Origin: Pseudomonas triclosanedens
Lineage (GTDB): Bacteria; Pseudomonadota; Gammaproteobacteria; Pseudomonadales; Pseudomonadaceae
Direction of reading: 5' to 3'
Assembly (NCBI RefSeq): GCF_026686735.1
Contig: NZ_CP113432.1
Location: 2,903,001 to 2,967,000, forward strand
DNA length: 64,000 bases
The notes below the pieces were generated by a model, which saw only the letters and a list, made by a program, of their open reading frames with translations, searched no databases and had not been told where the DNA came from. Positions 28,216-64,000 of this stretch are shown here, one piece after another. The stretch's first letter is position 1. Every line of letters begins with the position of its first letter. The position numbers were made by a program, and so were the translations under genes.

Positions 28216-28752
28216 TCAGCCGCGGTTGCCATCCAGGCTCTTCAGGGTTTTACGGCAGTGCACCAGCGCGTCGCGCACCATGAAGTTCACCAGGGTCGGA
28301 GAAACCCCCAGCTCCTCGGCGATTTCCTTCTGCGTACAGCCGTGCAGGCGATACATCTCGAAGGCATAGCGGGTGCGTTCGGGCAGGGACTGCAGGGCGC
28401 TGGAGATGGCTTCCAGAGTCTGGCGGTCTTCGTGCTCGGCTTCCGGCGACGCCGAGGGCGTCGGGATGTACATGCCTTCCTCCTCGCTGCCGGCGTAGCG
28501 CTTCTCCAGCGCCTGGCGCCGGTAGAGGTCGATGGCGAGATTGCGCACCACGCGCATCAGGTAGCCGCTCTGTGACTGGATGCCGGGCGTGAGCACCGAG
28601 CCATTGAGCTTCAGATAGGCATCGTGCACCACGTCTTCGGCATGGCTGCGGCAGCCGAGGATGCGTGCGGCCGCATTGATGAAGGTCTGCCGGTGGGTGG
28701 CGAACAGCTCGTGCAGAGCGGGCCGCGACTCGGCGGGCATTGGCTTGGACAT
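28216..28752 (-). CDS. PvdS-like iron-starvation ECF sigma factor
   Basis: A 178-residue ECF sigma factor. Region 2 has AARILGCRSHAEDVVHDAYLKL and YLMRVVRNLAIDLYRRQALEKRYAG; region 4 has LPERTRYAFEMYRLHGCTQKEIAEELGVSPTLVNFMVRDALVHCRK. These blocks closely resemble PvdS/PbrA/PfrI, the sigma factors of pyoverdine genes, and OrbS of Burkholderia. Start chosen at MSKPMPAES because AGGAAA lies at correct spacing. A strong Fur box sits 62-80 bases upstream, so iron represses it. It is expected to drive the iron-starvation-box promoters at 28973, 62315 and 63855. Confidence 0.92.
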   Translation of the reverse strand: MSKPMPAESRPALHELFATHRQTFINAAARILGCRSHAEDVVHDAYLKLNGSVLTPGIQSQSGYLMRVVRNLAIDLYRRQALEKRYAGSEEEGMYIPTPSASPEAEHEDRQTLEAISSALQSLPERTRYAFEMYRLHGCTQKEIAEELGVSPTLVNFMVRDALVHCRKTLKSLDGNRG

Positions 28753-28813
28753 GCAAGGTTTCCTATGCGGCGGAGGGGGCGTCCACATGGGGTGAGGCGG
28801 CCAATCTAGTTCA

Positions 28814-28832
28814 AATGATAATTATTATCAAT
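28814..28832. promoter_or_regulatory. Fur box
   Basis: AATGATAATTATTATCAAT, nearly palindromic (about 16 of 19 positions match its own reverse complement) and close to the Fur consensus of repeated NATWAT units. It lies in the ~320-base gap between the sigma-factor gene and the mbtH operon, 62 bases from the sigma start. It should give iron-dependent repression of the sigma gene. Confidence 0.88.
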
Positions 28833-28972
28833 TTATTCGAGAGACTCCGACTATCGCTCTGCGACAGGGTTCCCAGGCGGCATGAAGAAAATTCATGCGT
28901 ATCGCGGGGCGCCGCCGGCCAGACGGATTCATCTCCAGGCATTTTATGAGAATTAATCACATACGAGAACAC

Positions 28973-28996
28973 TAACTATTTCTCGATCTCCCTCGT
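28973..28996 (+). promoter_or_regulatory. Iron-starvation (PvdS) box for the NRPS operon
   Basis: TAACT, then exactly 16 bases, then CGT. It matches the PvdS consensus TAAAT-N16-CGT with one change in the -35 part. The extended -10 CTCGTC is shared with the two perfect boxes at 62315 and 63855. It lies 75 bases upstream of the mbtH-like start and faces the operon. Confidence 0.75.
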
Positions 28997-29070
28997 CTTC
29001 ATGGCAGAGCAGGCAAAACCTGGGCGATGGCCCGGTGCCGCCTTTCCATGCAGCGACAGGAGAACGTGCG

Positions 29071-29289
29071 ATGGCATTCGATCGCGAAGATGCGGTGTAC
29101 AAGGTTCTGGTCAACGGCGAGGAGCAATACTCGCTGTGGCCCGATTACAAGGAAGTCCCCGCCGGCTGGCGCGAAGCCGGTCAGCGCGGCAGCAAGGCGG
29201 AGTGCCTGGCCTTCGTGGAGCGTCACTGGACCGACATGCGCCCGCTGAGCCTGCGACAGAAGATGGACGGCCCGGTGGCGGGGCGCTGA
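29071..29289 (+). CDS. MbtH-like protein
   Basis: A 72-residue MbtH protein, a small partner that binds and activates adenylation domains of NRPSs. It shows the family pattern [25 protein letters not shown] and the downstream [23 protein letters not shown] precedes the ATG by eight bases; a longer frame upstream is not needed. It is the first gene of the plus-strand siderophore operon, with the thioesterase gene three bases downstream. Confidence 0.95.
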
Positions 29290-29292
29290 GCC

Positions 29293-30015
29293 ATGCTGCG
29301 GCTGTTCTGCCTGCCGTATTCCGGCGCCAGTGCGATGGTCTATGCGCGCTGGAAACGTCAATTGCCCGGCTGGATCGATATCTGCCCGCTGGAATTGCCT
29401 GGCCGTGGCCGGCGCTTTGGCGAAGCCCTGCAGACCGACCTGCACGCGCTGGCCGATCAACTGGCCGGGGAGATCGAAGAGCGTCTGGACCAGCCCTACG
29501 CACTGTTCGGCCATAGCCTCGGCGCTCTGCTGATCTTCGAGCTGGCCCACGCATTGCGCCGTCGCGGCCTGCCCGCGCCGCAGATGCTGTTCGCCTCCGC
29601 CGCCCCCGCGCCGTCGCGCCGCGAAAGCCACCTGGAGCTGGCGCGGGAACAGACCGACGCGCAACTCATGGAGCGCATGCGGCGCCTGGGCGGTACGCCG
29701 GAAGCAGTGTTCGCCGATAGCGAAATGCTGCGGCTGATCCTGCCGGTGCTGCGCGCCGATTTCCTGCTCTGCGGACGCTACCGCTACTACCGCCGCGCCC
29801 AGCTCGGCTGCCCGATCCACGTCTTCGGCGGCAAGCGCGATCGGTTGTCGGTGGAATCGCTGTCGGCCTGGCAGGACGAAACCCGCGCCGGCTTCTCTCT
29901 GGAGATGCTCGACGGCGACCACTTCTTCATCAACAGCGGCGAAGCGCGCCTGCTTGAACTTCTGCTCGGGCGCCTGCGGCAGCCGGGCCTTGCGCCTAGC
30001 CTGGCGCTGGCCTGA
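29293..30015 (+). CDS. Type II thioesterase (PvdG-like)
   Basis: A 240-residue alpha/beta hydrolase of the external thioesterase group. It has LFCLPYSGASA near the N-terminus, the nucleophile elbow FGHSLGALL (Ser near residue 78), and the C-terminal His in DGDHFFIN (about residue 213). Such enzymes clear misloaded groups from carrier proteins. Because neither NRPS here ends in a thioesterase domain, this protein or the hydrolase at 51922 may also release the product. It lies directly behind mbtH and 22 bases before the dioxygenase gene. Confidence 0.9.
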   Translation: MLRLFCLPYSGASAMVYARWKRQLPGWIDICPLELPGRGRRFGEALQTDLHALADQLAGEIEERLDQPYALFGHSLGALLIFELAHALRRRGLPAPQMLFASAAPAPSRRESHLELAREQTDAQLMERMRRLGGTPEAVFADSEMLRLILPVLRADFLLCGRYRYYRRAQLGCPIHVFGGKRDRLSVESLSAWQDETRAGFSLEMLDGDHFFINSGEARLLELLLGRLRQPGLAPSLALA

Positions 30016-30037
30016 ACGGCTGGCGCGGAGAACTCCG

Positions 30038-31012
30038 ATGTCCCAATCAACCCTGTTCGAAATCGCTCCCCTTGCCGGTGCCCGTGGTGGCCTGCCGCTA
30101 CTGGTGCAGGCGCGCGGCGATGGCATCGACCTGCTCGACGCCCTCACCGAGCTGCGGCCGCTCGTGGATGAGCGCCTGCCGGTATGTGCCGGCATCCTGT
30201 TTCGCGGCTTCCAGGTCGGCGCGGCGGAGCGCTTCCGCGAGTTCGCCGCCGGCTTCGGTCACCCGCTGCTGAACTACGAGTTCGGCTCCACCCCGCGCAG
30301 CAACGTCACCAGCGGCGTCTACACCTCCACCGAGTACCCGCCGCACCAGCACATCCCGCTGCACAACGAGCAGGCATACACCCGCGAGTGGCCGATGAAG
30401 ATATGGTTCTACTGCGTGCAGGCCGCGCACAGCGGCGGAGAGACGCCCATTGCCGACAGCCGCGAGATCTACCGCCGAGTGGACGAAGGCATCCGCCGCC
30501 GTTTCAGCGAGCGCGGGCTGATGTACACCCGCAACTTCGGCAATGGCCTCGACGTGGCCTGGGAACAGGTGTTCAACAGCGACGACCCGGCAGTGGTCGA
30601 GGCCTACTGCAAGGCCCATCGCATCGCCTGCGAATGGAAGGACGACGGCGAGTTGCGCACCCGCCAGGTGTGCCAGGCGGTGGCGCAGCATCCGTTCACC
30701 CATGACTGGGTCTGGTTCAACCAGGCGCACCTCTTCCACATCTCCAACCTGCCTGCGGAAGTGCGCGAAAGCCTGCTGGAAATCGTCGACGAGCAGGACC
30801 TGCCGCGCAACGTCTACTACGGCGACGGCAGCCCCATCGAGCCCTCGGTACTCGACGAAATCCGCGGCGTGCTGGACCAGGCCAAGGTCTGCTTCCCCTG
30901 GTGCAGCGGCGATGTACTGATGCTCGACAACATGCTCGCGGCCCATGCGCGCGCGCCGTTCAGCGGGCCGCGCAAGGTAGTGGTCGCGATGGCCGAAGGG
31001 TACGGGGCCTGA
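30038..31012 (+). CDS. SyrP/TauD-like dioxygenase, probable aspartate beta-hydroxylase
   Basis: A 324-residue Fe(II)/2-oxoglutarate dioxygenase of the TauD/TfdA group, SyrP-like. Iron ligands are readable as HNEQAY (His and Glu of the HxD/E motif, about residue 112) and the distal His in LAAHARAPFSGPRKV (about 306). The Arg of that last segment would hold 2-oxoglutarate. The NVTSGVYTSTEYPPHQHIPLHNE stretch is characteristic of siderophore hydroxylases. Module 2 of the adjacent NRPS reads as Asp-specific, so beta-hydroxylation of carrier-bound Asp is the obvious role; beta-hydroxyaspartate is an iron ligand in ornibactin-type siderophores. GGAG lies seven bases before the ATG. A longer upstream frame inside the thioesterase gene is rejected. 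Confidence 0.9.
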   Translation: MSQSTLFEIAPLAGARGGLPLLVQARGDGIDLLDALTELRPLVDERLPVCAGILFRGFQVGAAERFREFAAGFGHPLLNYEFGSTPRSNVTSGVYTSTEYPPHQHIPLHNEQAYTREWPMKIWFYCVQAAHSGGETPIADSREIYRRVDEGIRRRFSERGLMYTRNFGNGLDVAWEQVFNSDDPAVVEAYCKAHRIACEWKDDGELRTRQVCQAVAQHPFTHDWVWFNQAHLFHISNLPAEVRESLLEIVDEQDLPRNVYYGDGSPIEPSVLDEIRGVLDQAKVCFPWCSGDVLMLDNMLAAHARAPFSGPRKVVVAMAEGYGA

Positions 31013-31184
31013 GCGGCCGCGCGCCGGCCATGTTCCGTTGGAAGGCAGGCAGGACCATTCACCGCAGTGCGCTCCACGTTTGCCAGCCTCCCGCATCGCC
31101 AGGCTCCCGCTCGCGCGCCCAGGTCCATTTCCGAAAATCTTTTCCGGCAGATGCCCACCATTTGCCGACAGCACAGGTGATGTC

Positions 31185-51898
<20,714 letters not shown>

Positions 51899-51921
51899 AT
51901 GCGTTCCTGAAAGAGGTTGGT

Positions 51922-52857
51922 ATGTTGCACCCGGAGATTTCGGCGTTTCTGGACATGGTCGATGACGGCCGCCGTGGCGGTCGCCCGGCGCTGCACGAAT
52001 TGTCGGTGGCGCAGGCGCGGGAGGACTTCGAGGCGTCCTCCGCATCGCTCAGGGCCGGTGCGCCATCGATGCCGGTGAAGGATCTGCATATACCCGCGCG
52101 CGATGGCCGTGAGCTGGCGGTGCGGTTGTATCGGCCGGTGGCGTCCGGAGATGCGGCGATCCTGTACTTCCACGGCGGCGGCTACACGGTAGGCAGCCTG
52201 GATTCCCACGATGGGCTGTGCAGGGGGCTGGCTCGGCATTGCGACTGCGCGGTGATCTCCGTGGGCTATCGACTGGCGCCGGAAGCACCGTTCCCGTCGG
52301 CCACCCACGATGCCCGGGACGCCTGGCACTGGCTGTCGGGCGCCGCGCGGAGTCTTGGGCTGAACCCGCGTCGCCTGGCGGTGGGCGGCGACAGTGCGGG
52401 GGCCACGCTGGCCACCGTGCTATGCGCCGAATTGGCCGGTGAGGCCGCCGATCAGCCTTGCGCGCAACTGCTGTTCTATCCCGCCACGGATGCCGCCGGC
52501 CGCAGCGAGTCCCGGGAACTGTTCGCCGAAGGTTATCTGCTGGAAACCGCCAGCCTGGACTGGTTCCATGATCAGTACGTGCCGGACCTTGCGCAGCGCA
52601 GTGACTGGCGCTGTTCGCCCCTGCATGGGGGCTCCGTCTTGCAGGGCAGCGCGCCGGCGCTGCTGTTCGCTGCACAGTTCGACCCCTTGCTGGACGAAGG
52701 CCTGGCCTACGCGCAGGCCTTGGTAGAGCAGGGCGTGGAGGTGGAGGCCGAGCGCTGTTGCGGCATGACCCACGACTTCCTGCGCATGGCCAACCTGGTG
52801 CCGGAGGTGGAGGGGTATTACCGACGGGTGGCGGAGTTCCTTGCGGCACGCTGGTGA
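51922..52857 (+). CDS. HSL-family alpha/beta hydrolase (esterase) of the siderophore operon
   Basis: About 311 residues from MLHPEISAFLDMV. An ATG at 51895 overlapping the NRPS 2 stop (ATGA) would add nine residues; GAGG stands closer to the inner start, so either is possible. The hormone-sensitive-lipase family marks are LYFHGGGYTVGS (oxyanion HGGG), the nucleophile in VGGDSAGATLA, the Asp in FAAQFDPLLDEG and the His in GMTHDFLRM. Translational coupling to NRPS 2 makes it part of the pathway. Possible roles are release of the peptide from the last carrier domain or hydrolysis of the siderophore; sequence does not decide. Confidence 0.88.
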   Translation: MLHPEISAFLDMVDDGRRGGRPALHELSVAQAREDFEASSASLRAGAPSMPVKDLHIPARDGRELAVRLYRPVASGDAAILYFHGGGYTVGSLDSHDGLCRGLARHCDCAVISVGYRLAPEAPFPSATHDARDAWHWLSGAARSLGLNPRRLAVGGDSAGATLATVLCAELAGEAADQPCAQLLFYPATDAAGRSESRELFAEGYLLETASLDWFHDQYVPDLAQRSDWRCSPLHGGSVLQGSAPALLFAAQFDPLLDEGLAYAQALVEQGVEVEAERCCGMTHDFLRMANLVPEVEGYYRRVAEFLAARW

Positions 52858-53224: not shown

Positions 53225-55234
53225 TCAGGCCGTGCGCTCGCGGTGCATCAGCCAGAGGAAGTAGGGACAGCCGATGAACGCTGCCAGCAGGCCCGCCGAA
53301 ACCGGCCAGGGGTAGGCGATGTTGCGGCCCAGCCAATCGGCGACCACCATGATCAGTGCTCCGGCAACTGCGCTCAGCAGCAGTTGCGGGGCGGCGCGGC
53401 GAACGCCGAGGTGGCGGGCGATGTGCGGGCCGATCAGGCCGACGAAGCTCAACGGGCCGACGATGATGGTGGCGCTGGCGGTGAGTACGGCGGCAGTCAG
53501 CAGGATCGCGAGGTGGCTTGCGCGCAGGTGCAAACCCAGCGCCGTGGCGGTGCCATTTCCCAGCGTCAGCAGGTCCAACTGACGAGCCATCAGCAGGCTG
53601 ATACCGATCATCACCGAGCCGACCGCCAGCCCGGTACTCGCCGATACCGCATCCACCTGATAGGTCGAGCCGGTCATCCAGCTCATCATCGCCGTCATGC
53701 GTGGGTCGCCGCTGGCCAGCAGCAGGGTGCTCAGCGAGTGCAGCAGGGTGGTCAGGCAGACGCCGGTGAGCAGCAGGCGCTCTGCATTGAAGGTTCTGCG
53801 CCAGGCGAACCACAGCAGCAGGCCGAGGGTGAGCAGGGCTCCGGCGCTGGCCGCCGGGACCATATAGGGCTGCGGCTGCGGCATGACCAGGAACAGCACC
53901 AGCACGGCGATCGCTGAGCCCGAGGTAGCGCCGAGCACTTCCGGGCTGGCCATCGGGTTGCCGGTCAGGCGCTGTACCAGCAGGCCGGCCACGGCGAGCA
54001 TGGCGCCGGCCGCCAGTGCGCCGAGCACGCGAGGCAGGCGCCATTGCATGATGGCTTCGCTGAGCCCGGCATCACCCCAGTGCCAGCCGTTGGCATCGAC
54101 GGCGAAGTAGATTGCCGGCAGGGTCAGCAATGCGAGGAGGATGGCGGCGGCGCCTATCATTCTCCAGGGATGCTCGCGTTGCGGCCTGGCTGCCGCGGGA
54201 CGCGGGAGGATGCCGCCGCTGCGCTGGCGACCGAGCAGCCATAGCAGCAGTGGCACGCTGAATACGCCGGTGAGGATGCCGGCTGGAATTTCGCCAGCCA
54301 AGCGCGACAGTTCGCGGGCGATCTGGTCCACCACGCAGAGCAGTGCGGCTCCCAGCAACGGCGCCCAGACCAGTCTCTGGCGCAGCGTGCGCGCCCCGCA
54401 CAGACGGGCGATGGCGGGTGCGGCCAGGCCGACGAACGCCAGCATGCCGACGGCGCTGGTGACAAAGGCACTGAGCGCCACGGCTACCGCCAGGCCCAGC
54501 ACGCGGGTGCGGCGCAGGTTGACGCCGACGGCGCTGGCACCTTCGTCGTCCAGGCCCAGTGCGGCGAGCGGGCGGACCATGAGCAGCGCGGTGACCAGGG
54601 CTATCGCCAAACGTGGCGCCAGGTACAGCACGCCATCCCAGCCGCTCTGGTTGAGCGAGCCGGCCTGCCAGAGCAGCAGGTCGATCAGGTAGTCGTGGTT
54701 GAACAGCACCAGCAGTGCGTTGAGCGATACGCAGTAGAGGCTGATGACCATGCCGGCGAGGATGAAGCGCAGCGGCGACAGCGTGCGGCCCCAGGCGAAG
54801 GCGAACAGCAGGCCGGTGGCGATGGCGGCGCCGGTCAGGGTAACGGCTTCCAGGCCGTGCACAAGCAGGGTCGGGGCGAAGATGGTGGCGGCCGACAGCG
54901 CGAGGTTCGCGCCGGCGGAAACGCCAAGGGTCACTGGTTCGGCGAGCGGGTTACGCAGGATCTGCTGGAACAGCGTGCCGGCCAGGGCCAGGGCAGCGCC
55001 GGCCATCAGGCTTACCAGCAGGCGCGGGTAGAAGCTGTAGTGCATCAGTACCTGGCGCACGTCATCGAGGTCCGGCGACCACAGCGCCTGCCACCACAGT
55101 GTGCGGGGCAGGGCGTTCTGCAAGCCGTGCACCACCAGTAGCGCGGCGAGGGCGGCGAGGGCCAGCGTGCACAGCGCCGGCCCGGCGGGCAGACGGCGGT
55201 GTGCTGCGGAGAGGCCGAGGGTGGATTCAGGCAT
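53225..55234 (-). CDS. FhuB-like fused double permease for ferric siderophore
   Basis: A 669-residue inner-membrane protein consisting of two FecCD permease repeats in one chain, as in FhuB (about 660 residues). Repeat 1 (residues ~1-335) has PRLLVSLMAGAALALAGTLFQQILRNPLAEPVTLGVSAGANLAL and GMLAFVGLAAPAIARLCGAR; repeat 2 has PRVLGALAAGAMLAVAGLLVQRLTGNPMASPEVLGATSGSAIAV and GPLSFVGLIGPHIARHLGVRR. The GLxxPxIAR loops contact the ATPase. It overlaps the end of the FhuD-like gene by eight bases. No ATPase gene (FhuC type) is in the window, so it must lie further right or elsewhere. Fused permeases of this type usually carry hydroxamate siderophores. Confidence 0.93.
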   Translation of the reverse strand: MPESTLGLSAAHRRLPAGPALCTLALAALAALLVVHGLQNALPRTLWWQALWSPDLDDVRQVLMHYSFYPRLLVSLMAGAALALAGTLFQQILRNPLAEPVTLGVSAGANLALSAATIFAPTLLVHGLEAVTLTGAAIATGLLFAFAWGRTLSPLRFILAGMVISLYCVSLNALLVLFNHDYLIDLLLWQAGSLNQSGWDGVLYLAPRLAIALVTALLMVRPLAALGLDDEGASAVGVNLRRTRVLGLAVAVALSAFVTSAVGMLAFVGLAAPAIARLCGARTLRQRLVWAPLLGAALLCVVDQIARELSRLAGEIPAGILTGVFSVPLLLWLLGRQRSGGILPRPAAARPQREHPWRMIGAAAILLALLTLPAIYFAVDANGWHWGDAGLSEAIMQWRLPRVLGALAAGAMLAVAGLLVQRLTGNPMASPEVLGATSGSAIAVLVLFLVMPQPQPYMVPAASAGALLTLGLLLWFAWRRTFNAERLLLTGVCLTTLLHSLSTLLLASGDPRMTAMMSWMTGSTYQVDAVSASTGLAVGSVMIGISLLMARQLDLLTLGNGTATALGLHLRASHLAILLTAAVLTASATIIVGPLSFVGLIGPHIARHLGVRRAAPQLLLSAVAGALIMVVADWLGRNIAYPWPVSAGLLAAFIGCPYFLWLMHRERTA

Positions 55235-56132
55235 GGTCGGTCTCCGGCCGGGCGTCGAGATAGGTGGCGATGCGCTCGGCCAGGTCGAGCATCGAGGCGG
55301 CCCCGGCGTAGGGGTAGAAGCGCTGCAGGGTCAGGGTGTGGCCGCGGCGCACGGCGGGCAGATTGGCCCACAGGTCGTTGGGTTGGCGCAGCGCCTGCAG
55401 GCGCGCCGAGGTGGTCGGGATGTCGAGGTAGACCAGGTGCGCATCCGGGCGCTCGGCCAGGCGTTCGATGCTGACCATCGCCAGCCCGACCGGGCCGACC
55501 GGCCCCTGCCAGGCGTTGACCAGGCCGAGTTGGTCCAGCACATCCTGGACCATGCTGTTGCGTCCATAGACTGCCGCATGGCGGCCATCCTGGTTGAGCA
55601 CGGCGACGCACACCGGCGGCTGCGGGCGACGCCCGAGCTGGGCGCGCAGCTCGGCCAGGCGTCGCTCGCCGGCCTTGATGTACTGAACCGCGCGCTCCTC
55701 CTGGCCAAGGCGCTCGGCCAGTGCGCGCATGAAGTCGGTGGTGGCGCGCCAGGCGCCATTCGCGGCGGGGTAGATGGCTACTCGCTCGGTGGGAGCGATG
55801 CCGTTGAGACGGCGCTCCAGCGTGGGAGTCATGGGGTCGCTGAGGATCAGTTGCGGACGCAGTTGCTGGATCAGTTCGAGGTTCGGTTCCCAGTACGGTC
55901 CGACGTCGCGCACTGTGGCGGGCAGCGCCTGGGTGGGCATGCGTACGCGGTAGTAGCGGTCGTCGGATACCGCCAGCGGCGCGACGCCCAGGGTCAGCAG
56001 GGTCTCGGCGGCGACCCAGTTGAGCGCGACGATACGGGTCAGGCGTTCCCCGGCGAACGCTGGCAGCCCGGTGGCGCAGGCCAGCCCGCCAATGGCGAGG
56101 TGCTGCAGCAACTGACGGCGGTTGAGGAGCAT
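55227..56132 (-). CDS. FhuD-like periplasmic ferric-siderophore binding protein
   Basis: A 301-residue class III binding protein. The start at MLLNRRQ is decided by GGAG eight bases upstream; an ATG six bases earlier is too close. The N-terminus NRRQLLQHLAIGGLACATGLPAFA has twin arginines and could be a Tat signal, as in E. coli FhuD. The mature part follows the FhuD pattern: RIVALNWVAAETLLTLGVAPLAV, PNLELIQQLRPQLIL, and a long backbone helix. It sits between the TonB receptor and the FhuB-like permease on the same strand and should bind the ferric form of the peptide made by this locus. Confidence 0.92.
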   Translation of the reverse strand: MLLNRRQLLQHLAIGGLACATGLPAFAGERLTRIVALNWVAAETLLTLGVAPLAVSDDRYYRVRMPTQALPATVRDVGPYWEPNLELIQQLRPQLILSDPMTPTLERRLNGIAPTERVAIYPAANGAWRATTDFMRALAERLGQEERAVQYIKAGERRLAELRAQLGRRPQPPVCVAVLNQDGRHAAVYGRNSMVQDVLDQLGLVNAWQGPVGPVGLAMVSIERLAERPDAHLVYLDIPTTSARLQALRQPNDLWANLPAVRRGHTLTLQRFYPYAGAASMLDLAERIATYLDARPETDHA

Positions 56133-56163
56133 GGGCATTTCTCCACGCGGTTGAAACGACGAC

Positions 56164-56221: not shown

Positions 56222-58618
56222 TTACCAGCTGTACTTCACGCTGGTGAGCACGGTGCGGCGCAGGCCCGGGTAGCAGGAAATGGCGCTGTCGCAGGTAGCC
56301 ACGTAGTCCTCGTCGAGGAGGTTCTGGGCGTTCAGCGAAACGGTCACGTTCTTGTTGATCGGGTAGCTCACGCCGGCGTCGAACAGGGTGTAGTTGTCGA
56401 CGTGGAAGGTGTTGGCGTTGTTGCCGTAGAGCGAGCCGGTGTAGCGCGCGCCACCGCCGATGGAGAGGCCGCCCAAGGTGCCGTCGCGGAAGGTGTAGTT
56501 CAGCCAGCCGGAAGCCATGTGCTCGGGCACGTTGGCCGGGCGGTTGCCCTGGTTGCCGTCGTTGCTCTTGTGGATCTCCGCCTTGGTGTAGGTATAGGAC
56601 GCCAGCAGGTCCCAGTTCTCGTCCAGCCTGGCCTTGAGTTCCGCCTCGATACCGCGCGAGCGCTGCTTGCCGGTGGCTTCGCTGAAGCCGGTGGGGATGC
56701 CGTTGGCGTTCAGTTGCGGGGTCAGCGAATTGCTCTTCATCAGGTCGTAGGCCGCGAGGGTGACCAACAGGTTTTCGGTGGGCTGGTACTTCACGCCGAT
56801 TTCCCACTGGTTGGCTTCGCTGGGCTTGAATGCGTTGCCGGCGGAATCCAGGCCAGTGTTGGGGACGAAGGACTCGGCATAACTGATGTAGGGCGCCAGG
56901 CCGAAGTCGGTCAGGTAGGTCAGACCCACGCGGCCGGTGAAGGCGTTGTCCTTCTGCATGCTGTGCGCGCCGGTGTGGCTGTCGAGGTCGTTGCGCACAT
57001 AGTCGTAGCGGCCACCGGCGGTCAGGATCCAGCGATCGTCGTACTTGATCTGGTCCTGGATGTAGCCGCCGATCTGTTCGATGTTCTGGTCGTAGTTGAT
57101 TGCCTGGCCGCGCAGGGTGGTGTCTTCGGTGGGACGCTGGATGCTCTGGCCGTACTTCGGATCGTTCAGGTTCAGCGATGGGCCGAGCGTGCGCCAGCGG
57201 GCGATGTCGGCGTCCTGCCAGGCATAGTCGCCGCCCATCAGCAGAGTGTGCTTGAACGGCCCGGTCTCGAAGTTGGCCTGGAGCTGGTTGTCCAGGTTGA
57301 AGGTATTCATGTGCTGGTCGAAACGGTCGGCGGTGCGGATCACGTTGCCGGCCACCACGCCCTGGGGCAGGAGGTTGGCGAAGATCAGGTCGACCTGGCC
57401 GTAGCGGGCGTTCTGGCGGAATTCCCAGACATCGTCGAAGCGATGGCGGAACTCATAGCCGAGGGTGTATTGGTCCTGATCGTAGTGGTTGTAGCTGTGG
57501 TCGCCGAGCAGGGTACCGGTGGTGTGGCCGCCCACGCTGTAGTCGAAGATCGAGCCGGCGTTGCGGTCGCGCAGGAAGTCGGCGAGCAGGGTCAGGCTGG
57601 TGTCTTCGTCCGGCGCCCAGGTGAAGGAGGGCGCGAGGTACTGGCGGTCGTCGCGCAGTTCGTGGCCGTCGTCGTATTCGGCCTGGGTGTTGGCGTCGCG
57701 GGCCAGGCCAACCACGCGGTAGAGATACTGGTTCTGGTCGTCCAGCGCGCCGCCGAGGTCGAACTGGCCCTGCTTGCGGTCATGGTTGCCGCCGGTGAGC
57801 TCGACTTCGTTGACGTGGTTGGCGGTGGGCTTCTTGCTCACGCGGTTGATGATGCCGCCGGCGTCGCCCAGGCCGAACAGGCTCGAAGATGGGCCGCGGA
57901 CCACGTCAATGCGCTCGAAGGCGTAGGGTTCGCTACGAAAGTAGGCGTAGCTGTTGTTCTGCTGGCGGAGGCCGTTCAGGTAGTCGCTGGTAGCCTGGGC
58001 ATTGAAGCCGCGAATGTACAGCCAGTCGAAGCCTTTGGGATCGAGGCCGTAGGCTTCGACCTTGACGCCCGGCACGTAGCGCAGCGCTTCGGTGACGGTC
58101 TGCGCGCCCTGGGCATCCATCTGCTTGCGGGTGATCACGGAGATGGACTGGGGAATTTCGAGCAGCGGTGTATCGGTCTTGCTGCCACTGTTGGAGGTGC
58201 GCGGGACGTAGCTGTCTTCGCCCTCGACAGTGCCGGTAATGGTCTGCGCGGACATGTTCAGGGTGTCGCTGTCGCTTGCATCGGCACCCAGCAGGGTCAC
58301 ACGGCTGCCATCCACCTGGTACTTGATGCCGGTGCCGCGCAGCAGGCGCTCCAGGGCCTGGGTCGGCTCCATTTCGCCGCGCACGCTGGCGCTGCGCAGG
58401 TTGCGTACCTGGGTCTGGTTGAAGACGATCTGCAGGTCGGACTGCGCGCCCAGGGTGGTCAGGGCGGACGCCAGCGACTGCGCCGGGATGTCGATGTTGA
58501 CCGGAGCGGCGTAGGCGGCGGTGGCGCTCAGGACCATGCCGAAGGCGGTGGCGCGAACCAGGCGGGCCAGGGGTTTCACCGGGTGCTGGAATTGCGGCGC
58601 AGAGCGGGTGCGACTCAC
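56222..58618 (-). CDS. TonB-dependent ferric-siderophore receptor with signalling domain
   Basis: A 798-residue outer-membrane receptor. A GTG start is proposed because AGGAG lies seven bases upstream and it opens a signal peptide ending near AAYAAPVN. Residues ~45-120 are the STN/secretin signalling domain (VNIDIPAQSLASALTTLGAQSDLQIVFNQTQVRNLRSASV) used by transducers that talk to FecR. A plug domain follows (IPQSISVITRKQMDAQGAQTVTEALRYVPG, DVVRGPSSSLFGLGDAGGIINRVSKKP), then the 22-strand barrel ending in ...TSVKYSW, with the terminal aromatic residue typical of the group. The family is FpvA/FhuE-like. FecR and FecI genes nearby complete a surface-signalling set. An open frame upstream of the GTG has no receptor similarity. 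Confidence 0.94.
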   Translation of the reverse strand: MSRTRSAPQFQHPVKPLARLVRATAFGMVLSATAAYAAPVNIDIPAQSLASALTTLGAQSDLQIVFNQTQVRNLRSASVRGEMEPTQALERLLRGTGIKYQVDGSRVTLLGADASDSDTLNMSAQTITGTVEGEDSYVPRTSNSGSKTDTPLLEIPQSISVITRKQMDAQGAQTVTEALRYVPGVKVEAYGLDPKGFDWLYIRGFNAQATSDYLNGLRQQNNSYAYFRSEPYAFERIDVVRGPSSSLFGLGDAGGIINRVSKKPTANHVNEVELTGGNHDRKQGQFDLGGALDDQNQYLYRVVGLARDANTQAEYDDGHELRDDRQYLAPSFTWAPDEDTSLTLLADFLRDRNAGSIFDYSVGGHTTGTLLGDHSYNHYDQDQYTLGYEFRHRFDDVWEFRQNARYGQVDLIFANLLPQGVVAGNVIRTADRFDQHMNTFNLDNQLQANFETGPFKHTLLMGGDYAWQDADIARWRTLGPSLNLNDPKYGQSIQRPTEDTTLRGQAINYDQNIEQIGGYIQDQIKYDDRWILTAGGRYDYVRNDLDSHTGAHSMQKDNAFTGRVGLTYLTDFGLAPYISYAESFVPNTGLDSAGNAFKPSEANQWEIGVKYQPTENLLVTLAAYDLMKSNSLTPQLNANGIPTGFSEATGKQRSRGIEAELKARLDENWDLLASYTYTKAEIHKSNDGNQGNRPANVPEHMASGWLNYTFRDGTLGGLSIGGGARYTGSLYGNNANTFHVDNYTLFDAGVSYPINKNVTVSLNAQNLLDEDYVATCDSAISCYPGLRRTVLTSVKYSW

Positions 58619-58651
58619 TTGAAGACTCCTATGATCGTGTAATGCTGTTTC

Positions 58652-58728: not shown

Positions 58729-60417
58729 TCAGTGCAGGGCGATGTCCGGGGTGGCGCTGGGCTGCCGCGCGCCATGTTCCTCGATCTCGACGATCTGCCC
58801 GGCGCTCATGCGCAGCAGTCGGTCGGCGACATCGAAGTAGCGGTCGTCGTGGGAGATCACGATCAGCGTCTTGCCCTGGGCGCGCAGCTCCGGCAGCAGC
58901 TCGGTGTAGAAGATGCGGCGGAACTCCGGGTCCTGGTCGGCGGCCCACTCGTCGAACACCAGCACCGGGCGCTTCTCCAGCCACGCCTGGACCAGGGCGA
59001 GGCGCTTGCGCTGGCCAGTGGAGAGGTCGGTGGTGGAGAACTCCTGGCCCTTCAGGCTGACTTTGTGGGCGATCTCAAGGCGCTCAAGGTAGCGATTGGC
59101 TTCGACGGGGATTTCCCCGCTGTCCTTGAGCAGGTCCTCGAACAGGAAGTAGTCCGCGAAGATGGTGGTGAACAACTGGCGATAGTCGTCGCGATTGGCA
59201 TCGCTCACGGCCTCGCCGTTGAGCAGCAGCTCGCCGCCACGCGGTGCGTAGAGGCCCAGCAATAGCTTGATCAGGGTCGTCTTGCCGCAGCCGTTCTCGC
59301 CGGCGATGAAGAGAATTTCGCCACGGAGCAGGGTCAGGTTCAGCGGGCCGACACCGAATCCCCGGGAGCCGTCTTCGGTGGGGTAGTGATAGCTGAGGTC
59401 GCGCAGTTCGATACGCTGCATATCCAGGGCGGCGCGGCCGTCGTCGGCCAGCAGCAGGTTCGGCTCCGGGGAAGAGAAACGCACCGACAGTTCAGCGATA
59501 CGGCGGAACGCCACCTGCGCGCGGCTGACGATGGGCAGTTGGCCGATCAGGTGCTCCAGTGGGCCCTTCATGTACAGCAAGACCAGGATGAAGCCGCTGA
59601 GGGTTGCCTTGTCGGTGCTTGGCCAGAGTGACTGGTAGGCCAGCGCCACGCCGATGACGATGAAGAACAGCGTCGAACCGAAGCCCTTGGCGATGACGAA
59701 CAGGTTGATCGAACGGACCTGTATGTCGCAGATGCGGTCGGCGGTGCCCTGGAGGCGCTCGCTGTAATGCTGGAAGCGCCGGGGCCGGCTGATGCGCAGT
59801 TCCTTGGAGCCTTCGGCCATTGCACGGTAGTGCTTCTGAAGTTCGTCTTCTTCGTCGCGCGCCTCGAAGAAACCCTTGATGCCCTTGCTGCGCGCCACGT
59901 ACTGCACGGCGCTGCCGATGATGATGGCCACGGCGGTGGTGAGGAACATTGGTAGCGACAGGTTGGCGAGGTAGCCCAGGCAGCCAAGGGTCACGGTGAG
60001 GGACACCGCCAGCGGCGCGAAGGCGAAGGCGAAATCGCTGATGGTGTCGATATCGTGGGTCAGCACCGGGATCAGGCGGTGGCTGCGATAGCGCTCGATC
60101 TGCTCGATTGGTGCGGAAATGATCTTGCTGCCCAGCTCCTTGCGCAGCCGCGCGATGACGTGCTGGCCAACGTAGTTGGTGCCGATATCGGAAATGATCG
60201 AGCCCACCAGAGCCAGCGCGCAGAGCCCGGTGAAGCCCAGCAGGAGGCCCGACGGCATGCCGCCTTCGGAGTGCAGGCTGTAGTTGATGGTGGCCAGCAG
60301 GGCGGTGATGCTCGCGCCGCCGAGAATGCCGAGCAGGGTGGCGATGGCGAGGGGCAGCCAGAACGGCCGCAGCAGCTTGAAGAGTTCGCCCAGTGGGCTT
60401 TGCGCAGGCGTGTGCAT
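58729..60417 (-). CDS. PvdE-like cyclic peptide/siderophore ABC exporter
   Basis: A 562-residue fused ABC exporter (membrane domain ~1-320, ATPase ~335-555) of the PvdE/SyrD group. Seen in the ATPase: Walker A AGENGCGKTT, signature DLSTGQRKRLALV, Walker B PVLVFDEWAADQDP, and switch His in VISHDDRYF. DEWAADQDP instead of DEPTSALD is a hallmark of this group. It should move the precursor or finished peptide from cytoplasm to periplasm. It follows fecR on the same strand after ~165 bases and precedes the receptor gene. Confidence 0.94.
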   Translation of the reverse strand: MHTPAQSPLGELFKLLRPFWLPLAIATLLGILGGASITALLATINYSLHSEGGMPSGLLLGFTGLCALALVGSIISDIGTNYVGQHVIARLRKELGSKIISAPIEQIERYRSHRLIPVLTHDIDTISDFAFAFAPLAVSLTVTLGCLGYLANLSLPMFLTTAVAIIIGSAVQYVARSKGIKGFFEARDEEDELQKHYRAMAEGSKELRISRPRRFQHYSERLQGTADRICDIQVRSINLFVIAKGFGSTLFFIVIGVALAYQSLWPSTDKATLSGFILVLLYMKGPLEHLIGQLPIVSRAQVAFRRIAELSVRFSSPEPNLLLADDGRAALDMQRIELRDLSYHYPTEDGSRGFGVGPLNLTLLRGEILFIAGENGCGKTTLIKLLLGLYAPRGGELLLNGEAVSDANRDDYRQLFTTIFADYFLFEDLLKDSGEIPVEANRYLERLEIAHKVSLKGQEFSTTDLSTGQRKRLALVQAWLEKRPVLVFDEWAADQDPEFRRIFYTELLPELRAQGKTLIVISHDDRYFDVADRLLRMSAGQIVEIEEHGARQPSATPDIALH

Positions 60418-60552
60418 CGTCTTTTCCTAGGCTCGGCCCGCGGTTTGGCGGGCCGGAAATCGTGGGCGAGACGGCAGGCGGATCGATGGACTGATCTGCA
60501 AATCCGAATCGTTGCTGTTAAGACGAATGAGCCGGGAGAAAACTGAAAGGAA

Positions 60553-60571
60553 TTTGCGAAAGATTCGCAAA
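60553..60571. promoter_or_regulatory. Perfect palindrome between fecR-like and exporter genes
   Basis: TTTGCGAA-AGA-TTCGCAAA, 8-bp arms and a 3-base centre, 12 bases past the fecR stop and 136 bases upstream of the exporter start. The short loop makes an RNA hairpin awkward, so a protein-binding site is the better reading. The binder is unknown. Confidence 0.5.
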
Positions 60572-60582
60572 AAGGCGGGGAG

Positions 60583-61590
60583 TCAGAGTTGTACGTAGCG
60601 GCTGGAGAGGGTGATGCGCCCTGCGTTGTCCTTGCGCAGCTCTACCGGCAGTACCTTGGGCAGGGAGTCCACCAGTGCCTGCAGGTCGTCGGTGCGGTAG
60701 ATGCCGCCGATGCGCATGGCGGCGGCTTCGGCGTCGTCGAGGCGCACCGGTTGCTTCAGGTAACGGTTTATCAACGGGATGGCAGCTTGCAGGGTGAGGT
60801 CGTCAAGCACCAGCTTGCCCTCGGTCCAGGCGATTGCACCTGCCGGAGCGACCTGCGCCAGTTCTATGTGTCCGCTGCCACGCAGGTAGCGTGCCTGCAT
60901 ACCTGGGGTGAGCTGAGCGCTGTTGCCATCGATGTCGTCCGGCGGGCTGACCACCACCGAGCCTTCAAGAAGGGTTACCAGCATCTGGTTGGCATCGGTC
61001 CAGACGTTGAAGCGGGTGCCGGTGACGCGCACGCTGCCGTTGTCGGTGTGTACGGAGAAGGGGTGCAGTGTGTCATGGGTGACGCGGAAATAGGCTTCGC
61101 CGCCGCTCTTGAGCCAGGCGCTGCGGCGATCGCGGAAGTCGGCATAGATCAGTTGCGAGTCGCTGTTGAGTTCGACCGCGGAGCCGTCGGCCAGATGAAC
61201 TTCGCGTGGCGCGGGCTGGCTGCCGTAGTAGCCGATGCGCGAAGGCAGCCAACCGGCGGACCAGCCCGCCGACCAGGCCGCGCCCAGGGTCACCAGGAGG
61301 CTGGCGGCGATTGCCGCGAACCGGCGCCCGCTGCGTGCTCGACGAGCCCTGGAGCGACGCGGGGCTGCCGGCAATGGCGCATCGCTGGCTGTCGCCGGCA
61401 GCAGTTCGGAGAGCTGCCAGATTTCCAGCATCGCCTGATATTCCTCCACATGCCGGGGATCGGCCGCGCACCACTGCGCGAACGCCGCGCGCTCGGCGAC
61501 GCCGCAATCGGCATCGTGCAGACGAGCGCACCAGTGCGCGGCTTCGTCGCTGATGCGGTCATCGTCGATCGGAGAGGGGGAGGCGTTCAT
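60583..61590 (-). CDS. FecR-type anti-sigma/sigma regulator
   Basis: A 335-residue FecR protein. The N-terminal DUF4880-like part (EAAHWCARLHDADCGVAERAAFAQWCAADPRHVEEY) binds the sigma factor in the cytoplasm. One membrane helix follows at ~93-113 (IAASLLVTLGAAWSAGW). The periplasmic FecR domain has REVHLADGSAVELNSDSQL, FSVHTDNGSVRVTGTRFNV and TLLEGSVVV, and a C-terminal STN-like segment (AIPLINRYLKQPVRL...DLQALVDSLPKVLPVE). It receives the signal from the receptor's signalling domain. Unusually, it is divergent from the fecI-like gene rather than behind it, leaving a 128-base shared gap. Confidence 0.93.
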   Translation of the reverse strand: MNASPSPIDDDRISDEAAHWCARLHDADCGVAERAAFAQWCAADPRHVEEYQAMLEIWQLSELLPATASDAPLPAAPRRSRARRARSGRRFAAIAASLLVTLGAAWSAGWSAGWLPSRIGYYGSQPAPREVHLADGSAVELNSDSQLIYADFRDRRSAWLKSGGEAYFRVTHDTLHPFSVHTDNGSVRVTGTRFNVWTDANQMLVTLLEGSVVVSPPDDIDGNSAQLTPGMQARYLRGSGHIELAQVAPAGAIAWTEGKLVLDDLTLQAAIPLINRYLKQPVRLDDAEAAAMRIGGIYRTDDLQALVDSLPKVLPVELRKDNAGRITLSSRYVQL

Positions 61591-61718
61591 CGAGGGTCCC
61601 GGTTCGAGCCTTTGGCGTGGCTCGTATCACACTTTCTTTTCGAGTTGATGCGAGTGATTATAAATAAGCCTGACTCGGACTGTCAGCAGGCGCCAGCAGC
61701 CTCGACTGTTTTCATGGG

Positions 61719-62225: not shown

Positions 62226-62301
62226 CGCAATCGCCTTCGCTTTTCCGCGTCTTTGCCAATACGCGGCATGGCTGTCGGTTTGAGCCGGACTTTCACGCTT
62301 A

Positions 62302-62320
62302 GTGAGAATCATTCTAAATT
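62302..62320. promoter_or_regulatory. Fur-like site overlapping the oxygenase promoter
   Basis: GTGAGAATCATTCTAAATT contains GAGAATCATTCT, close to one half of the Fur consensus, and overlaps the -35 element of the iron-starvation box at 62315. It could add direct Fur control to sigma-dependent expression. Confidence 0.5.
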
Positions 62321-62338
62321 TCGCCGTCCTTGTCTCGT
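62315..62338 (+). promoter_or_regulatory. Iron-starvation (PvdS) box for the oxygenase gene
   Basis: TAAAT-N16-CGT with no mismatch (TAAAT 62315-62319, CGT 62336-62338), preceded by C and extended to CTCGTC at the -10 end. About 150 bases upstream of the ornithine oxygenase start. Confidence 0.88.
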
Positions 62339-62487
62339 CTCTCCAGAGAACGCGCTGTAGATAGCGCAACTCATGGACGACACGCAGGAGCAGCAGGCGA
62401 AGTCGCCGTGCCGCTGGCCGCAGCGGCAGGCTGCCGGCTCCCGCGTCGTCGTGCCCCACGGCCATCGCGACACAGGACATTGGCACC

Positions 62488-63822
62488 ATGACTCAGATGA
62501 TCACTCCGACCTACGACGTGCTCGGCATCGGCTTCGGCCCCTCCAACCTGGCGTTGGCGATCGCCCTGCAGGAACAAGCGCGACGCGAGGGCCGCCACTA
62601 CCACGCGCTGTTCCTCGACAAGCAGGCGGACTACCGCTGGCACGGCAACACCCTGGTGGCGCAGAGCGAATTGCAGATTTCCTTCCTCAAGGACCTGGTG
62701 ACGCTGCGCAATCCCACCAGCCCGTACAGCTTCGTCAACTACCTGCACGCGATGGGCCGGTTGATCGACTTCACTAACCTGGGCACTTTCTATCCGTGCC
62801 GCATGGAGTACAACGACTACCTGCGCTGGGTCAGCGACCAGTTCGCCGAACAGCGTGCCGGTGGCGAAACCGTCACTCGCGTGGAGCCGGTGCAGGGGCC
62901 TGCCGGTATCGAGCTGCTCAAGGTACTGTCTGCCGATGCTCGCGGCCACGAGCGCTTCCGTCTGGCGCGCAGCGTGGTAGTGAGCACCGGTGGCACGCCA
63001 CGAATTCCCTCGGCCTTCAGCCATCTGCGCGACGATGCGCGGGTCTTCCACCATGCGTGCTACATCGAACGTATGGCCATCCAGCCCTGCACCCGCAACG
63101 AGCCGATGCGTATCGCGGTGATCGGCGGCGGGCAGAGCGCGGCGGAAGCGTTCATCGACCTCAACGACAGCTATCCGTCGGTGCAGGTCGACATGATCTT
63201 GCGCGCTGCGGTGCTCAAGCCGGCGGACGACAGCCCCTTCGTCAACGAAATCTTCGCGCCGCGCTATACCGATCTGGTGTTCAACGAGCCGCAGGCCGAG
63301 CGCGAGAAGCTGATTCAGGAGTTCCACAACACCAATTACTCGGTGGTCGACCTCGACCTCATCGAGCGCATCTACGGCATCTTCTATCGGCAGAAGGTGG
63401 CGGGCTCGGAACGCCACGCCTTCCGCTGCCGCCGCACTGTCGAAGCTGCTAAGGCTGATGCGGCGGGCATCGAGCTGACCCTGCGCGACAGCGCTACCGG
63501 TACCGTCGAGACCCACCTCTACGATGCCGTGATCCTCGCCACCGGCTATGAGCGCAAGTCCCACCGTGAACTGCTGGCGCCGCTGCAGGACTACCTCGGC
63601 AACTTCGAAGTGGGCCGCGATTACCGCCTGCGCAGCGACGAGCGCCTGCGCGCCGCCGTCTACCTGCAGGGCTTTACTCAGGACAGCCACGGCCTGAGCG
63701 ACACGTTGCTGTCGGTACTGCCGATCCGCGCCGAGGAAATCGCCGCATCGATGTTCGCGCATCTTCCGCCCCACGAGACCGCACAAACGCCGTCGCGTCC
63801 GCTGGCCGCCGAAAGCGCCTGA
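62488..63822 (+). CDS. pvdA: L-ornithine N5-monooxygenase (PvdA-like)
   Basis: A 444-residue flavin N-hydroxylase, the length of PvdA. Family blocks are the FAD motif YDVLGIGFGPSNLALAIAL, LDKQADYRWHGNTLVAQSELQISFLKDLVTLRNPTSPYSFVNYLH, the NADPH motif IAVIGGGQSAAE, and DAVILATGYERK. It hydroxylates free ornithine at N5 before acylation, giving the hydroxamate unit. Lysine N6-hydroxylase is the alternative, but the DGE-type pockets of A1/A5 and close likeness to PvdA favour ornithine. Start MTQMITPTYD was set by family comparison. It is under an iron-starvation box and is followed by another such promoter and a further gene. Confidence 0.94.
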   Translation: MTQMITPTYDVLGIGFGPSNLALAIALQEQARREGRHYHALFLDKQADYRWHGNTLVAQSELQISFLKDLVTLRNPTSPYSFVNYLHAMGRLIDFTNLGTFYPCRMEYNDYLRWVSDQFAEQRAGGETVTRVEPVQGPAGIELLKVLSADARGHERFRLARSVVVSTGGTPRIPSAFSHLRDDARVFHHACYIERMAIQPCTRNEPMRIAVIGGGQSAAEAFIDLNDSYPSVQVDMILRAAVLKPADDSPFVNEIFAPRYTDLVFNEPQAEREKLIQEFHNTNYSVVDLDLIERIYGIFYRQKVAGSERHAFRCRRTVEAAKADAAGIELTLRDSATGTVETHLYDAVILATGYERKSHRELLAPLQDYLGNFEVGRDYRLRSDERLRAAVYLQGFTQDSHGLSDTLLSVLPIRAEEIAASMFAHLPPHETAQTPSRPLAAESA

Positions 63823-63854
63823 TTCCTGCGTCCGGGTCGAATGATCCGGGCCAC

Positions 63855-63878
63855 TAAATTTTTTCCGGCCCTGCTCGT
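63855..63878 (+). promoter_or_regulatory. Iron-starvation (PvdS) box for the gene at 63920
   Basis: Exact TAAAT-N16-CGT (TAAAT 63855-63859, CGT 63876-63878), again CTAAAT ... CTCGTC, 42 bases before the next ATG. Confidence 0.86.
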
Positions 63879-63919
63879 CATACGAGCGGGGTCATTGCAT
63901 TCCCCGAGGTTGACCCGCC

Positions 63920-64000
63920 ATGACGCATTCCGCTCCGCTTCACTCCCTGCCGTTGCCCGATGGCCGTCGGTTGTCCGCCGACTGCGGGGCCGGCAGCCTT
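63920..64000 (+). CDS. Start of a further siderophore gene, cut by the window end
   Basis: Only 27 codons are visible (MTHSAPLHSLPLPDGRRLS...). GAGG lies ten bases before the ATG and an exact iron-starvation box just upstream, so the gene belongs to the sigma regulon. The opening LPLPDGRRL resembles the N-terminus of GNAT-type acyltransferases of hydroxamate pathways, and an N5-hydroxyornithine acyltransferase is the one biosynthetic step otherwise missing. This identity is a guess from context; too little sequence is present. Confidence 0.6.
   Translation, partial: MTHSAPLHSLPLPDGRRLSADCGAGSL

What the first reader, a model, noticed from the sequence alone, without database searches (positions are those of the whole stretch)
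28216..64000. Possible undescribed acyl-pentapeptide siderophore: acyl-X-D-(OH)Asp-Ser-Gly-D-X
Five adenylation pockets read by eye give X, Asp, Ser, Gly, X. With a PvdA-like N-oxygenase, a SyrP/TauD-like hydroxylase and two epimerases, the product would carry two hydroxamates and one beta-hydroxyaspartate, enough for hexadentate iron binding. The first three residues repeat the ornibactin/malleobactin order, but the Gly insertion, the terminal epimerised X, the FAAL start and the FhuB/FhuD uptake pair form a combination I do not recognise as a named Pseudomonas siderophore.
Basis: partly seen in the sequence, partly recalled or inferred. Interest (0 to 1): 0.85.

Follow-up and report, generated by a model that had tools for sequence, protein, structure and literature searches.

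The report
Bokeelamide-type lipopeptide siderophore with glycine swap
This is an assembly line for an iron-scavenging, fat-tailed pentapeptide in Pseudomonas nitroreducens-group bacteria; it matches the recently described bokeelamides except that one D-serine has been replaced by glycine, and it appears to be these bacteria's only peptide siderophore in place of pyoverdine.

Summary
The five pockets read OHOrn, Asp, Ser, Gly, OHOrn. The fatty-acid loader, Asp hydroxylase, ornithine N-oxygenase, two epimerases and FhuB/FhuD are there. An N-acyltransferase, FhuF and FhuC follow past the window's end. The host most likely belongs to the P. nitroreducens group.

'Undescribed' is only partly right. 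Residue order and accessory genes match the bokeelamide cluster bka of Ectopseudomonas khazarica (PMC11574851), except module 4: bka has D-Ser with an epimerase, this cluster has Gly without one. I found no paper on the Gly form.

Module 4 is a mosaic: its C domain and, less firmly, T domain resemble a D-Ser module's; its A-core is Gly-type; no epimerase follows. Sister genomes carry plausible intermediates.

In 14 of 25 genus genomes the condensation-domain count leaves room for no other NRPS, so no pyoverdine. PvdS-type boxes precede its operons.

Predicted product: acyl-AcOHOrn-betaOHAsp-Ser-Gly-cyclo-D-OHOrn, m/z 760.409 with a C12:0 tail.

The parts
28216..28788 (-). PvdS-type ECF sigma factor (start may be at 28749)
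   Evidence: NCBIfam PRK07037, 229.6 bits, cut-off 190; 57-59% identical to the sigma beside the FAAL-NRPS in 5 genus genomes, G005 G009 G011 G012 G021; in G013 the best match (55%) lies on another contig than its NRPSs
28811..28829 (.). Fur-box-like site before the sigma gene
   Evidence: 15 of 19 match to a recalled Fur consensus, the best in the region scanned; 6 sites of 13 or more found, 0.47 expected
28973..28996 (+). PvdS-type iron-starvation box TAANT-N16-CGT, 98 bp before MbtH
   Evidence: found 67-103 bp before MbtH in 10 of 10 loci in which MbtH was located
29071..29289 (+). MbtH-like protein, the only one in the genome
   Evidence: PF03621, E 1.9e-23, one match; ORF
29293..30015 (+). 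type II thioesterase
   Evidence: GHSLG motif and position read from sequence; weak NCBIfam hit only; 73-81% identical to the counterpart in G230, G304, G342
30038..31012 (+). TauD-type aspartyl beta-hydroxylase
   Evidence: PF02668; 80-81% identical to the counterpart in G230, G304, G342, which have the bokeelamide module plan
31185..43970 (+). NRPS1: FAAL-T / C-A(OHOrn)-T / C-A(Asp)-T-E / C-A(Ser)-T
   Evidence: start read
43970..51898 (+). NRPS2: C-A(Gly)-T / C-A(OHOrn)-T-E, no thioesterase domain
44400..44430 (+). REP-like palindrome inside the C4 coding sequence
   Evidence: 15 exact genome-wide matches, none for the reversed-pattern control; variable insert in relatives
51895..52857 (+). 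Abhydrolase_3 esterase, likely counterpart of bkaP
   Evidence: PF07859; follows terminal OHOrn modules in relatives
53225..55234 (-). FhuB ferric-hydroxamate permease
   Evidence: NCBIfam 719 bits, cut-off 554
55227..56138 (-). FhuD-like periplasmic binding protein
   Evidence: PF01497; PRK10576 169.7 bits, below cut-off 252
56222..58618 (-). TonB-dependent FhuA/FoxA-like receptor with N-terminal signalling (STN) domain
   Evidence: PF00593, PF07715, PF07660; TIGR01783 over cut-off; start GTG 58618
58729..60417 (-). PvdE/SyrD-type ABC exporter
   Evidence: TIGR01194 750.5 bits, cut-off 286
60583..61590 (-). FecR anti-sigma regulator
   Evidence: PF04773, PF16220
61719..62225 (+). FecI-type ECF sigma factor
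   Evidence: PRK12527 229 bits, cut-off 162
62315..62338 (+). PvdS-type box 173 bp before PvdA
62488..63822 (+). PvdA-type L-ornithine N5-monooxygenase, the only strong one in the genome (352 bits, next best 36)
   Evidence: 3s5w 667.6 bits
63855..63878 (+). PvdS-type box 65 bp before the N-acyltransferase
63920..64000 (+). start of the GNAT N-acyltransferase (continues as L002:1521-2513); FhuF and FhuC follow outside the window
   Evidence: PF13523, PF06276, PF00005 on L002

Best explanation
The locus is the only NRPS-made siderophore system of this P. nitroreducens-group genome and makes a glycine-4 relative of the bokeelamides. PvdA hydroxylates ornithine at N5. FAAL loads a fatty acid. Five modules add OHOrn, Asp, Ser, Gly and OHOrn. 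The TauD enzyme hydroxylates the Asp on its carrier. The last OHOrn is epimerised. The GNAT enzyme acetylates OHOrn-1. The chain is released with ring closure of the terminal OHOrn, probably with help from the esterase. The PvdE-type pump exports it. The FhuA-like receptor and FhuBCD bring the ferric form in, and FhuF reduces it. Fur and the PvdS-type sigma switch on synthesis; FecI/FecR with the receptor's signalling domain tune uptake. Shown here: gene content, pockets, domain order, conservation, promoter boxes, no condensation domain elsewhere in the genome. Inferred: every chemical step, the acyl group, ring closure, stereochemistry and the regulatory links. Module 4 arose from a D-Ser module by an A-core change to Gly and loss of its epimerase (inferred from the mosaic).
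For: Pockets and domains. PvdA, TauD, GNAT, FhuF and FhuC, FhuB, FhuD, receptor and exporter. The bka text names L thioesterase, M hydroxylase, P esterase, Q-T and Z transport, W monooxygenase, X acetyltransferase; the window's gene order fits all of these letters if N and O are the NRPSs. All condensation domains of the genome lie here; each of the 14 genus genomes with the close esterase has exactly seven at E 1e-30, this cluster's number. TAANT-N16-CGT occurs three times in 68.7 kb, each just before one of three biosynthetic operons, and is conserved. Module 4 mosaic: C4 61% to the D-Ser module's C of G307 against 27% to its Gly module's C; A4 76% Gly against 58% Ser; T4 76% D-Ser against 63% Gly.
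Against: No chemistry has been done here. Pocket codes do not say whether OHOrn is acylated before loading. The acyl group is not fixed by the sequence: the GNAT's best PDB match is SidF, named an anhydromevalonyl transferase. Bokeelamide's Asp was L-erythro despite an epimerase, so stereochemistry at residue 2 is open. A DCL-type C5 and a GGDS carrier may simply suit glycine rather than record a lost epimerase: all 17 carriers before a DCL-like C without an E in between have GGDS. The T-domain tree has weak support, and G029's Gly carrier (68%) is about as close to T4 as the weakest D-Ser carriers (67-68%). The bka sequence itself could not be compared. G307 and G412 lack the box before PvdA.
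Confidence: 0.85

Rival explanations
1. It is simply a bokeelamide cluster: A4 loads Ser in practice, or the pocket reading is wrong, and the product equals a known bokeelamide.
For: Same gene order and same other modules.
Against: A4 carries a Gly-type pocket in the 13 of 14 genomes in which it could be read (nine of ten letters in G024; L007 does not reach A4), the A-core is nearest to Gly modules and module 4 has no epimerase, whereas bka module 4 does.
Confidence: 0.06
2. An ornibactin/malleobactin-type siderophore.
For: Shared order OHOrn-OHAsp-Ser (recalled).
Against: FAAL start, Gly, terminal OHOrn with an epimerase, an N-acyltransferase beside PvdA, and no formyltransferase among the cluster genes given to the family searches; ornibactin's putrescine end and formyl group are recalled features with no counterpart here.
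Confidence: 0.02
3. NRPS1 is a converted pyoverdine PvdL, so the siderophore grew out of the pyoverdine line.
For: Same domain plan as the PvdL-like proteins of G005, G009, G011, G012, beside a PvdS-type sigma; FAAL is 63-68% identical to theirs against 61% to G029's.
Against: C2, C3 and E1 group with the G019/G029 siderophore lineages, not with PvdL; C1 is also nearer G029's.
Confidence: 0.05
4. The terminal residue is left open or hydrolysed rather than cyclised, giving a linear product 18 Da heavier.
For: The release enzyme is not assigned even for bokeelamide.
Against: Bokeelamide's terminal OHOrn is cyclic by NMR, and a terminal OHOrn-E module followed by this esterase is shared with the bokeelamide-plan loci.
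Confidence: 0.12

Closest known systems
Bokeelamides / bka cluster, Ectopseudomonas khazarica EM133 (PMC11574851, section 2 read whole)
   Same: Lipid loader, five modules OHOrn-Asp-Ser-X-OHOrn, epimerases in modules 2 and 5, TauD hydroxylase, ornithine monooxygenase, N-acetyltransferase, thioesterase plus esterase, ferric-hydroxamate transport genes, and a gene order that fits the published gene letters.
   Different: Residue 4 is Gly with no epimerase instead of D-Ser with one. Host group differs. Product not isolated.
Lactuchelins, Pseudomonas lactucae (PMC12904278; abstract, passages and section 19 read)
   Same: Acylated hydroxamate/OHAsp siderophore in strains without pyoverdine, FhuBCD/FhuF uptake, a transposon hit in pvdS among the siderophore-negative clones.
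   Different: Five NRPS genes, seven residues, two OHAsp, one Orn, ring through 3-hydroxybutyrate.
Formomarinobactin, Pseudomonas lutea group (PMC13037486; passages read)
   Same: Acyl-chain suite reported only from pyoverdine-negative strains.
   Different: Six residues, formylated OHOrn.
Ornibactin / malleobactin (recalled)
   Same: Order OHOrn-OHAsp-Ser at the start.
   Different: No FAAL start, fourth residue Orn with formyl group and putrescine end.
Pyoverdine (PvdL-like loci in G005, G009, G011, G012)
   Same: PvdS-type sigma next to a FAAL-NRPS, PvdE-type exporter and PvdA (family knowledge), OHOrn pocket code.
   Different: No chromophore modules; C and E domains are not close.

Membership tests
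bokeelamide (bka) biosynthesis | fatty-acid loader followed by five NRPS modules | tested here: met
bokeelamide (bka) biosynthesis | residues OHOrn-Asp-Ser-Ser-OHOrn | tested here: not met
   position 4 is Gly-type in the window and in the 12 relatives where it could be read
bokeelamide (bka) biosynthesis | epimerases in modules 2, 4 and 5 | tested here: not met
   present in 2 and 5, absent in 4
bokeelamide (bka) biosynthesis | ornithine monooxygenase, N-acetyltransferase, TauD hydroxylase, esterase, thioesterase, ferric-hydroxamate transport | tested here: met
   gene letters; same set and order in G304 and G342
bokeelamide (bka) biosynthesis | hydroxylase of the TbetaHAsp class | tested here: inconclusive
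   TauD family and 80-81% identity to counterparts in bokeelamide-plan clusters; the class paper was not held
bokeelamide (bka) biosynthesis | L-erythro-OHAsp and cyclic D-OHOrn in the product | not testable with these tools
   needs the compound
ornibactin/malleobactin | putrescine end and formylated OHOrn | tested here: not met
   terminal module is OHOrn-E; GNAT beside PvdA and no formyltransferase among the cluster genes searched; the defining features are recalled
lactuchelin | five NRPS genes, seven residues with two OHAsp | tested here: not met
   two NRPS genes, five modules, one Asp module
pyoverdine | chromophore-forming PvdL | tested here: not met
   condensation domains occur only in this NRPS pair and its pockets differ from the PvdL-like ones

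The most novel reading that the evidence does not exclude
A natural, stepwise edit of a siderophore assembly line can be read across living genomes: D-Ser-4 (bokeelamide plan: G230, G304, G342), then an added Gly module (G307, G412), then conversion of the D-Ser module's A-core to Gly with loss of its epimerase (G019), then the Gly-4 pentapeptide fixed as the sole, PvdS-controlled peptide siderophore of a whole Pseudomonas clade. The esterase that tracks terminal OHOrn modules would be the ring-closing or release enzyme that the bokeelamide authors could not assign.
Probability: 0.5. Interest if true: 0.65.

Novelty: new variant of a known kind. Interest (0 to 1): 0.5.

Why it matters
If right, a clade in the genus of P. 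aeruginosa (placement recalled) has exchanged pyoverdine for a membrane-seeking lipopeptide siderophore while keeping pyoverdine-style control, another such exchange beside lactuchelin and formomarinobactin. The mosaic module 4 shows how nature changes one residue, D-Ser to Gly: it swaps the A-core and drops the epimerase but keeps the flanking C and, probably, T domains. That is directly useful for NRPS engineering. The link between the esterase and terminal OHOrn modules makes the open question of how cyclic OHOrn ends are formed testable by one gene deletion.

Tried and rejected
NRPS1 as a converted PvdL: tested with domain identities and trees and not supported for C and E domains; the FAAL alone is nearer PvdL but its tree is unresolved. 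Ornibactin-type product: no support. The 'four condensation stretches' that Pfam counts in NRPS2 are three domains, one split by an in-frame insert. Mupirochelin was checked and is a salicylate/thiazoline type (passages). The Pseudomonas iron review PMC10393863 does not mention nitroreducens (term count and passages). Reitz 2019 on hydroxylase classes is not held, so the TbetaHAsp class rests on the bokeelamide paper and recall. The strict TAAAT box search alone was not above chance in number (2 found, 0.86 expected); the case rests on placement and conservation. The GGDS carrier motif was first taken as proof of a lost epimerase; one search shows it before every DCL-like C domain seen (17 of 17, many near-identical rows), so I use it only as weak support.

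Esterase as a pure replacement for a missing thioesterase: weakened. Of 20 hand-picked genomes (from the 102 hits, not a random sample), 19 have an OHOrn-type terminal module directly before the esterase, 8 ending in E and 11 without E, and one (G381) has no NRPS domain there. All 11 without E have a GWSLG thioesterase-like tail, as has G012. Controls without the esterase: G005 and G009 end in another pocket before a thioesterase-like tail, but G013 ends in an OHOrn-like pocket with E and a thioesterase-like motif, which is against strict specificity.

Corrections made on re-checking: G019's first module had been cut by my own fetch, not by a contig end; it was fetched and read and is OHOrn. 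Nothing was run with the search for homologous proteins, structure prediction or fold search.
Full report
What is there. The window is G000:C1:2903001-2967000 of a 6.25 Mb single-contig genome. A scan of named genomes with the cluster's esterase gave 7 loci at 84-86%: P. nitroreducens (two strains), P. nicosulfuronedens, P. pseudonitroreducens and three unnamed Pseudomonas sp. (patterns were taken from the query, so only close relatives can appear). The host group is inferred from this. The cluster runs in order: PvdS-type sigma (-), MbtH, TEII, TauD hydroxylase, NRPS1, NRPS2, esterase (+), FhuB, FhuD, TonB receptor, PvdE-type exporter, FecR (-), FecI-type sigma, PvdA, GNAT, FhuF (+), FhuC (-); the last three lie mostly or wholly beyond position 64000.

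Pockets and domains. The domain scan gives FAAL-T, C-A-T, C-A-T-E, C-A-T | C-A-T, C-A-T-E. Pockets aligned to one another are DGEACGGVTK, DLTKVGHVGK, DVWHMSLIDK, DILQFGLIWK, DGEACGGVTK; that these mean OHOrn, Asp, Ser, Gly, OHOrn is recalled from the specificity code. Both E domains and the five C domains keep an HHxxxDG motif (read from the sequence). The C tree puts C1, C2, C4 in one clade, whose motifs are LCL-like, and C3, C5 in another, whose motifs are DCL-like (the LCL/DCL naming is recalled).

The known relative. Bokeelamides from E. khazarica are lipid-L-AcOHOrn-L-erythro-OHAsp-L-Ser-D-Ser-D-cyclicOHOrn (section 2 read whole, supplements not seen). The named letters bkaL, M, P, Q-T, W, X and Z fall on the window's genes in order if N and O are the two NRPSs; that mapping is mine. 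A family-wide search for the esterase (102 of 398 genomes at E 1e-75) led to the six closest loci outside the genus. G230, G304 and G342 have the complete bokeelamide module plan, G104 the visible end of it; G304 and G342 have the same gene order from MbtH to FhuC, while in G230 none of the transport genes was found in the 14 kb fetched after the esterase; G307 has OHOrn, Asp-E, Ser, Ser-E, Gly, OHOrn-E, and G412 its visible second half. G019, in the window's genus, has FAAL, OHOrn, Asp-E, Ser, Gly, Gly, OHOrn-E, with a PvdS-type sigma at 80%. G029, in another genus, has Thr, OHOrn, Asp-E, Ser, Gly, Ser, OHOrn-E.

Module 4 as a mosaic. In 50-column steps along C4-A4-T4, the window follows the D-Ser module of G307 through C (43-88% against 12-40% for the Gly module), is nearer the Gly module through the A-core in the steps at about residues 530-870 (58-88% against 34-72%, clearest from 680), is level after that, and is nearer the D-Ser module in the carrier step at 1061 (84% against 68%). 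Setting aside its own type and G019's first Gly module, the carrier T4 is best matched, by bit score, by the six D-Ser carriers (67-76%), then G029's Gly carrier (68%) and the G307/G412 Gly carriers (63%). The 75-residue tree has weak support and this step is the least secure. No epimerase follows. The simplest path is D-Ser plan, Gly module added, D-Ser A-core converted with loss of E, extra Gly module lost; the order is inference.

Sole NRPS siderophore. Condensation domains in the genome occur only here. In the 25 held genomes of the genus, 14 have the esterase at 83% or more; each of the 14 has exactly seven condensation-family domains at E 1e-30, this cluster's own number, and one PvdA at 90% or more. 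The list was capped, so that all seven lie in the cluster was seen for the window and for the clusters read, not place by place for every genome. Four genomes (G007, G015, G016, G020) have none at that threshold. Absence of pyoverdine is thus inferred from absence of NRPS, not from a chromophore-gene search. Non-NRPS siderophores were not searched for.

Coverage of relatives. Six clusters were read whole (window, G001, G002, G003, G004, G023); G024's NRPS1 is whole but its NRPS2 is in pieces; of the seven named loci, six show all of NRPS2 and L007 only its end. By their coordinates the named loci are G006, G008, G010, G014, G022, G017 and G018. Pocket 4 was readable in 13 of the 14: DILQFGLIWK in 11, DILQYGLIWK in L010, and the first nine letters in G024.

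Regulation. TAANT-N16-CGT, a form of the recalled PvdS box, occurs three times in the 68.7 kb scanned (mean 1.15, maximum 6, in 60 first-order Markov sequences), 98, 173 and 65 bp before MbtH, PvdA and GNAT on the right strand. Across 13 loci it lies before MbtH in 10 of 10 where MbtH was found (67-103 bp), before PvdA in 6 of 8 (not G307 or G412) and before GNAT in 5 of 5; six further hits lie elsewhere. G019 also has one between its sigma and TEII genes. The sigma is 57-59% identical to one beside the FAAL-NRPS in five genus genomes; in G013 the best match lies on another contig. In P. lactucae a pvdS insertion was among the clones that lost siderophore production (PMC12904278, passages).

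Esterase. In 19 of 20 hand-picked further genomes the gene directly before the esterase is an NRPS ending in an OHOrn-type module. Eleven of these also have a thioesterase-like tail, so the enzyme may close the OHOrn ring rather than only free the chain.

Limits. Statements that the Gly form is not in print rest on searches of an open-access library, of which I saw listings and the papers named here. Papers seen: PMC11574851 (section 2), PMC12904278 (abstract, passages, section 19), and passages only of PMC13037486, PMC12971057, PMC12823289, PMC10080011, PMC10393863, PMC11734721, PMC11937826, PMC9059233, PMC8949500.

Noticed in passing
window 44318-44550 (core 44400-44430): A REP-like palindrome family (15 exact copies in the genome, none for the control) sits in frame inside the C4 domain of NRPS2; insert length differs between the window and six relatives compared, and is nil in L006.
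   Followed up: partly
window 51895-52857; L057-L076: The Abhydrolase_3 esterase directly follows an NRPS with a terminal OHOrn-type module in 19 of 20 hand-picked other Pseudomonadaceae genomes, 11 of them with a thioesterase-like tail as well.
   Followed up: partly
G001, G002, G004, G024: PvdA lies about 70, 400, 260 and 340 kb from the esterase, whereas it is about 10-11 kb away in the window genome, G003 and G023: the cluster is split in some species.
   Followed up: no
L033-L034 (G024): NRPS2 is broken into several frames in this genome; degenerate gene or sequencing error, not resolved.
   Followed up: no
L019-L021 (G029), L022 and L084 (G019), L050-L052 (G307, G412): Sister assembly lines predict hepta- and hexapeptide siderophores of the same family that I did not find described.
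   Followed up: partly
window 1-28200: The upstream part of the window was not studied, apart from the ORF listing and printing two ORFs next to the sigma gene, which look like an EamA-type transporter and an AraC-type regulator by eye.
   Followed up: no
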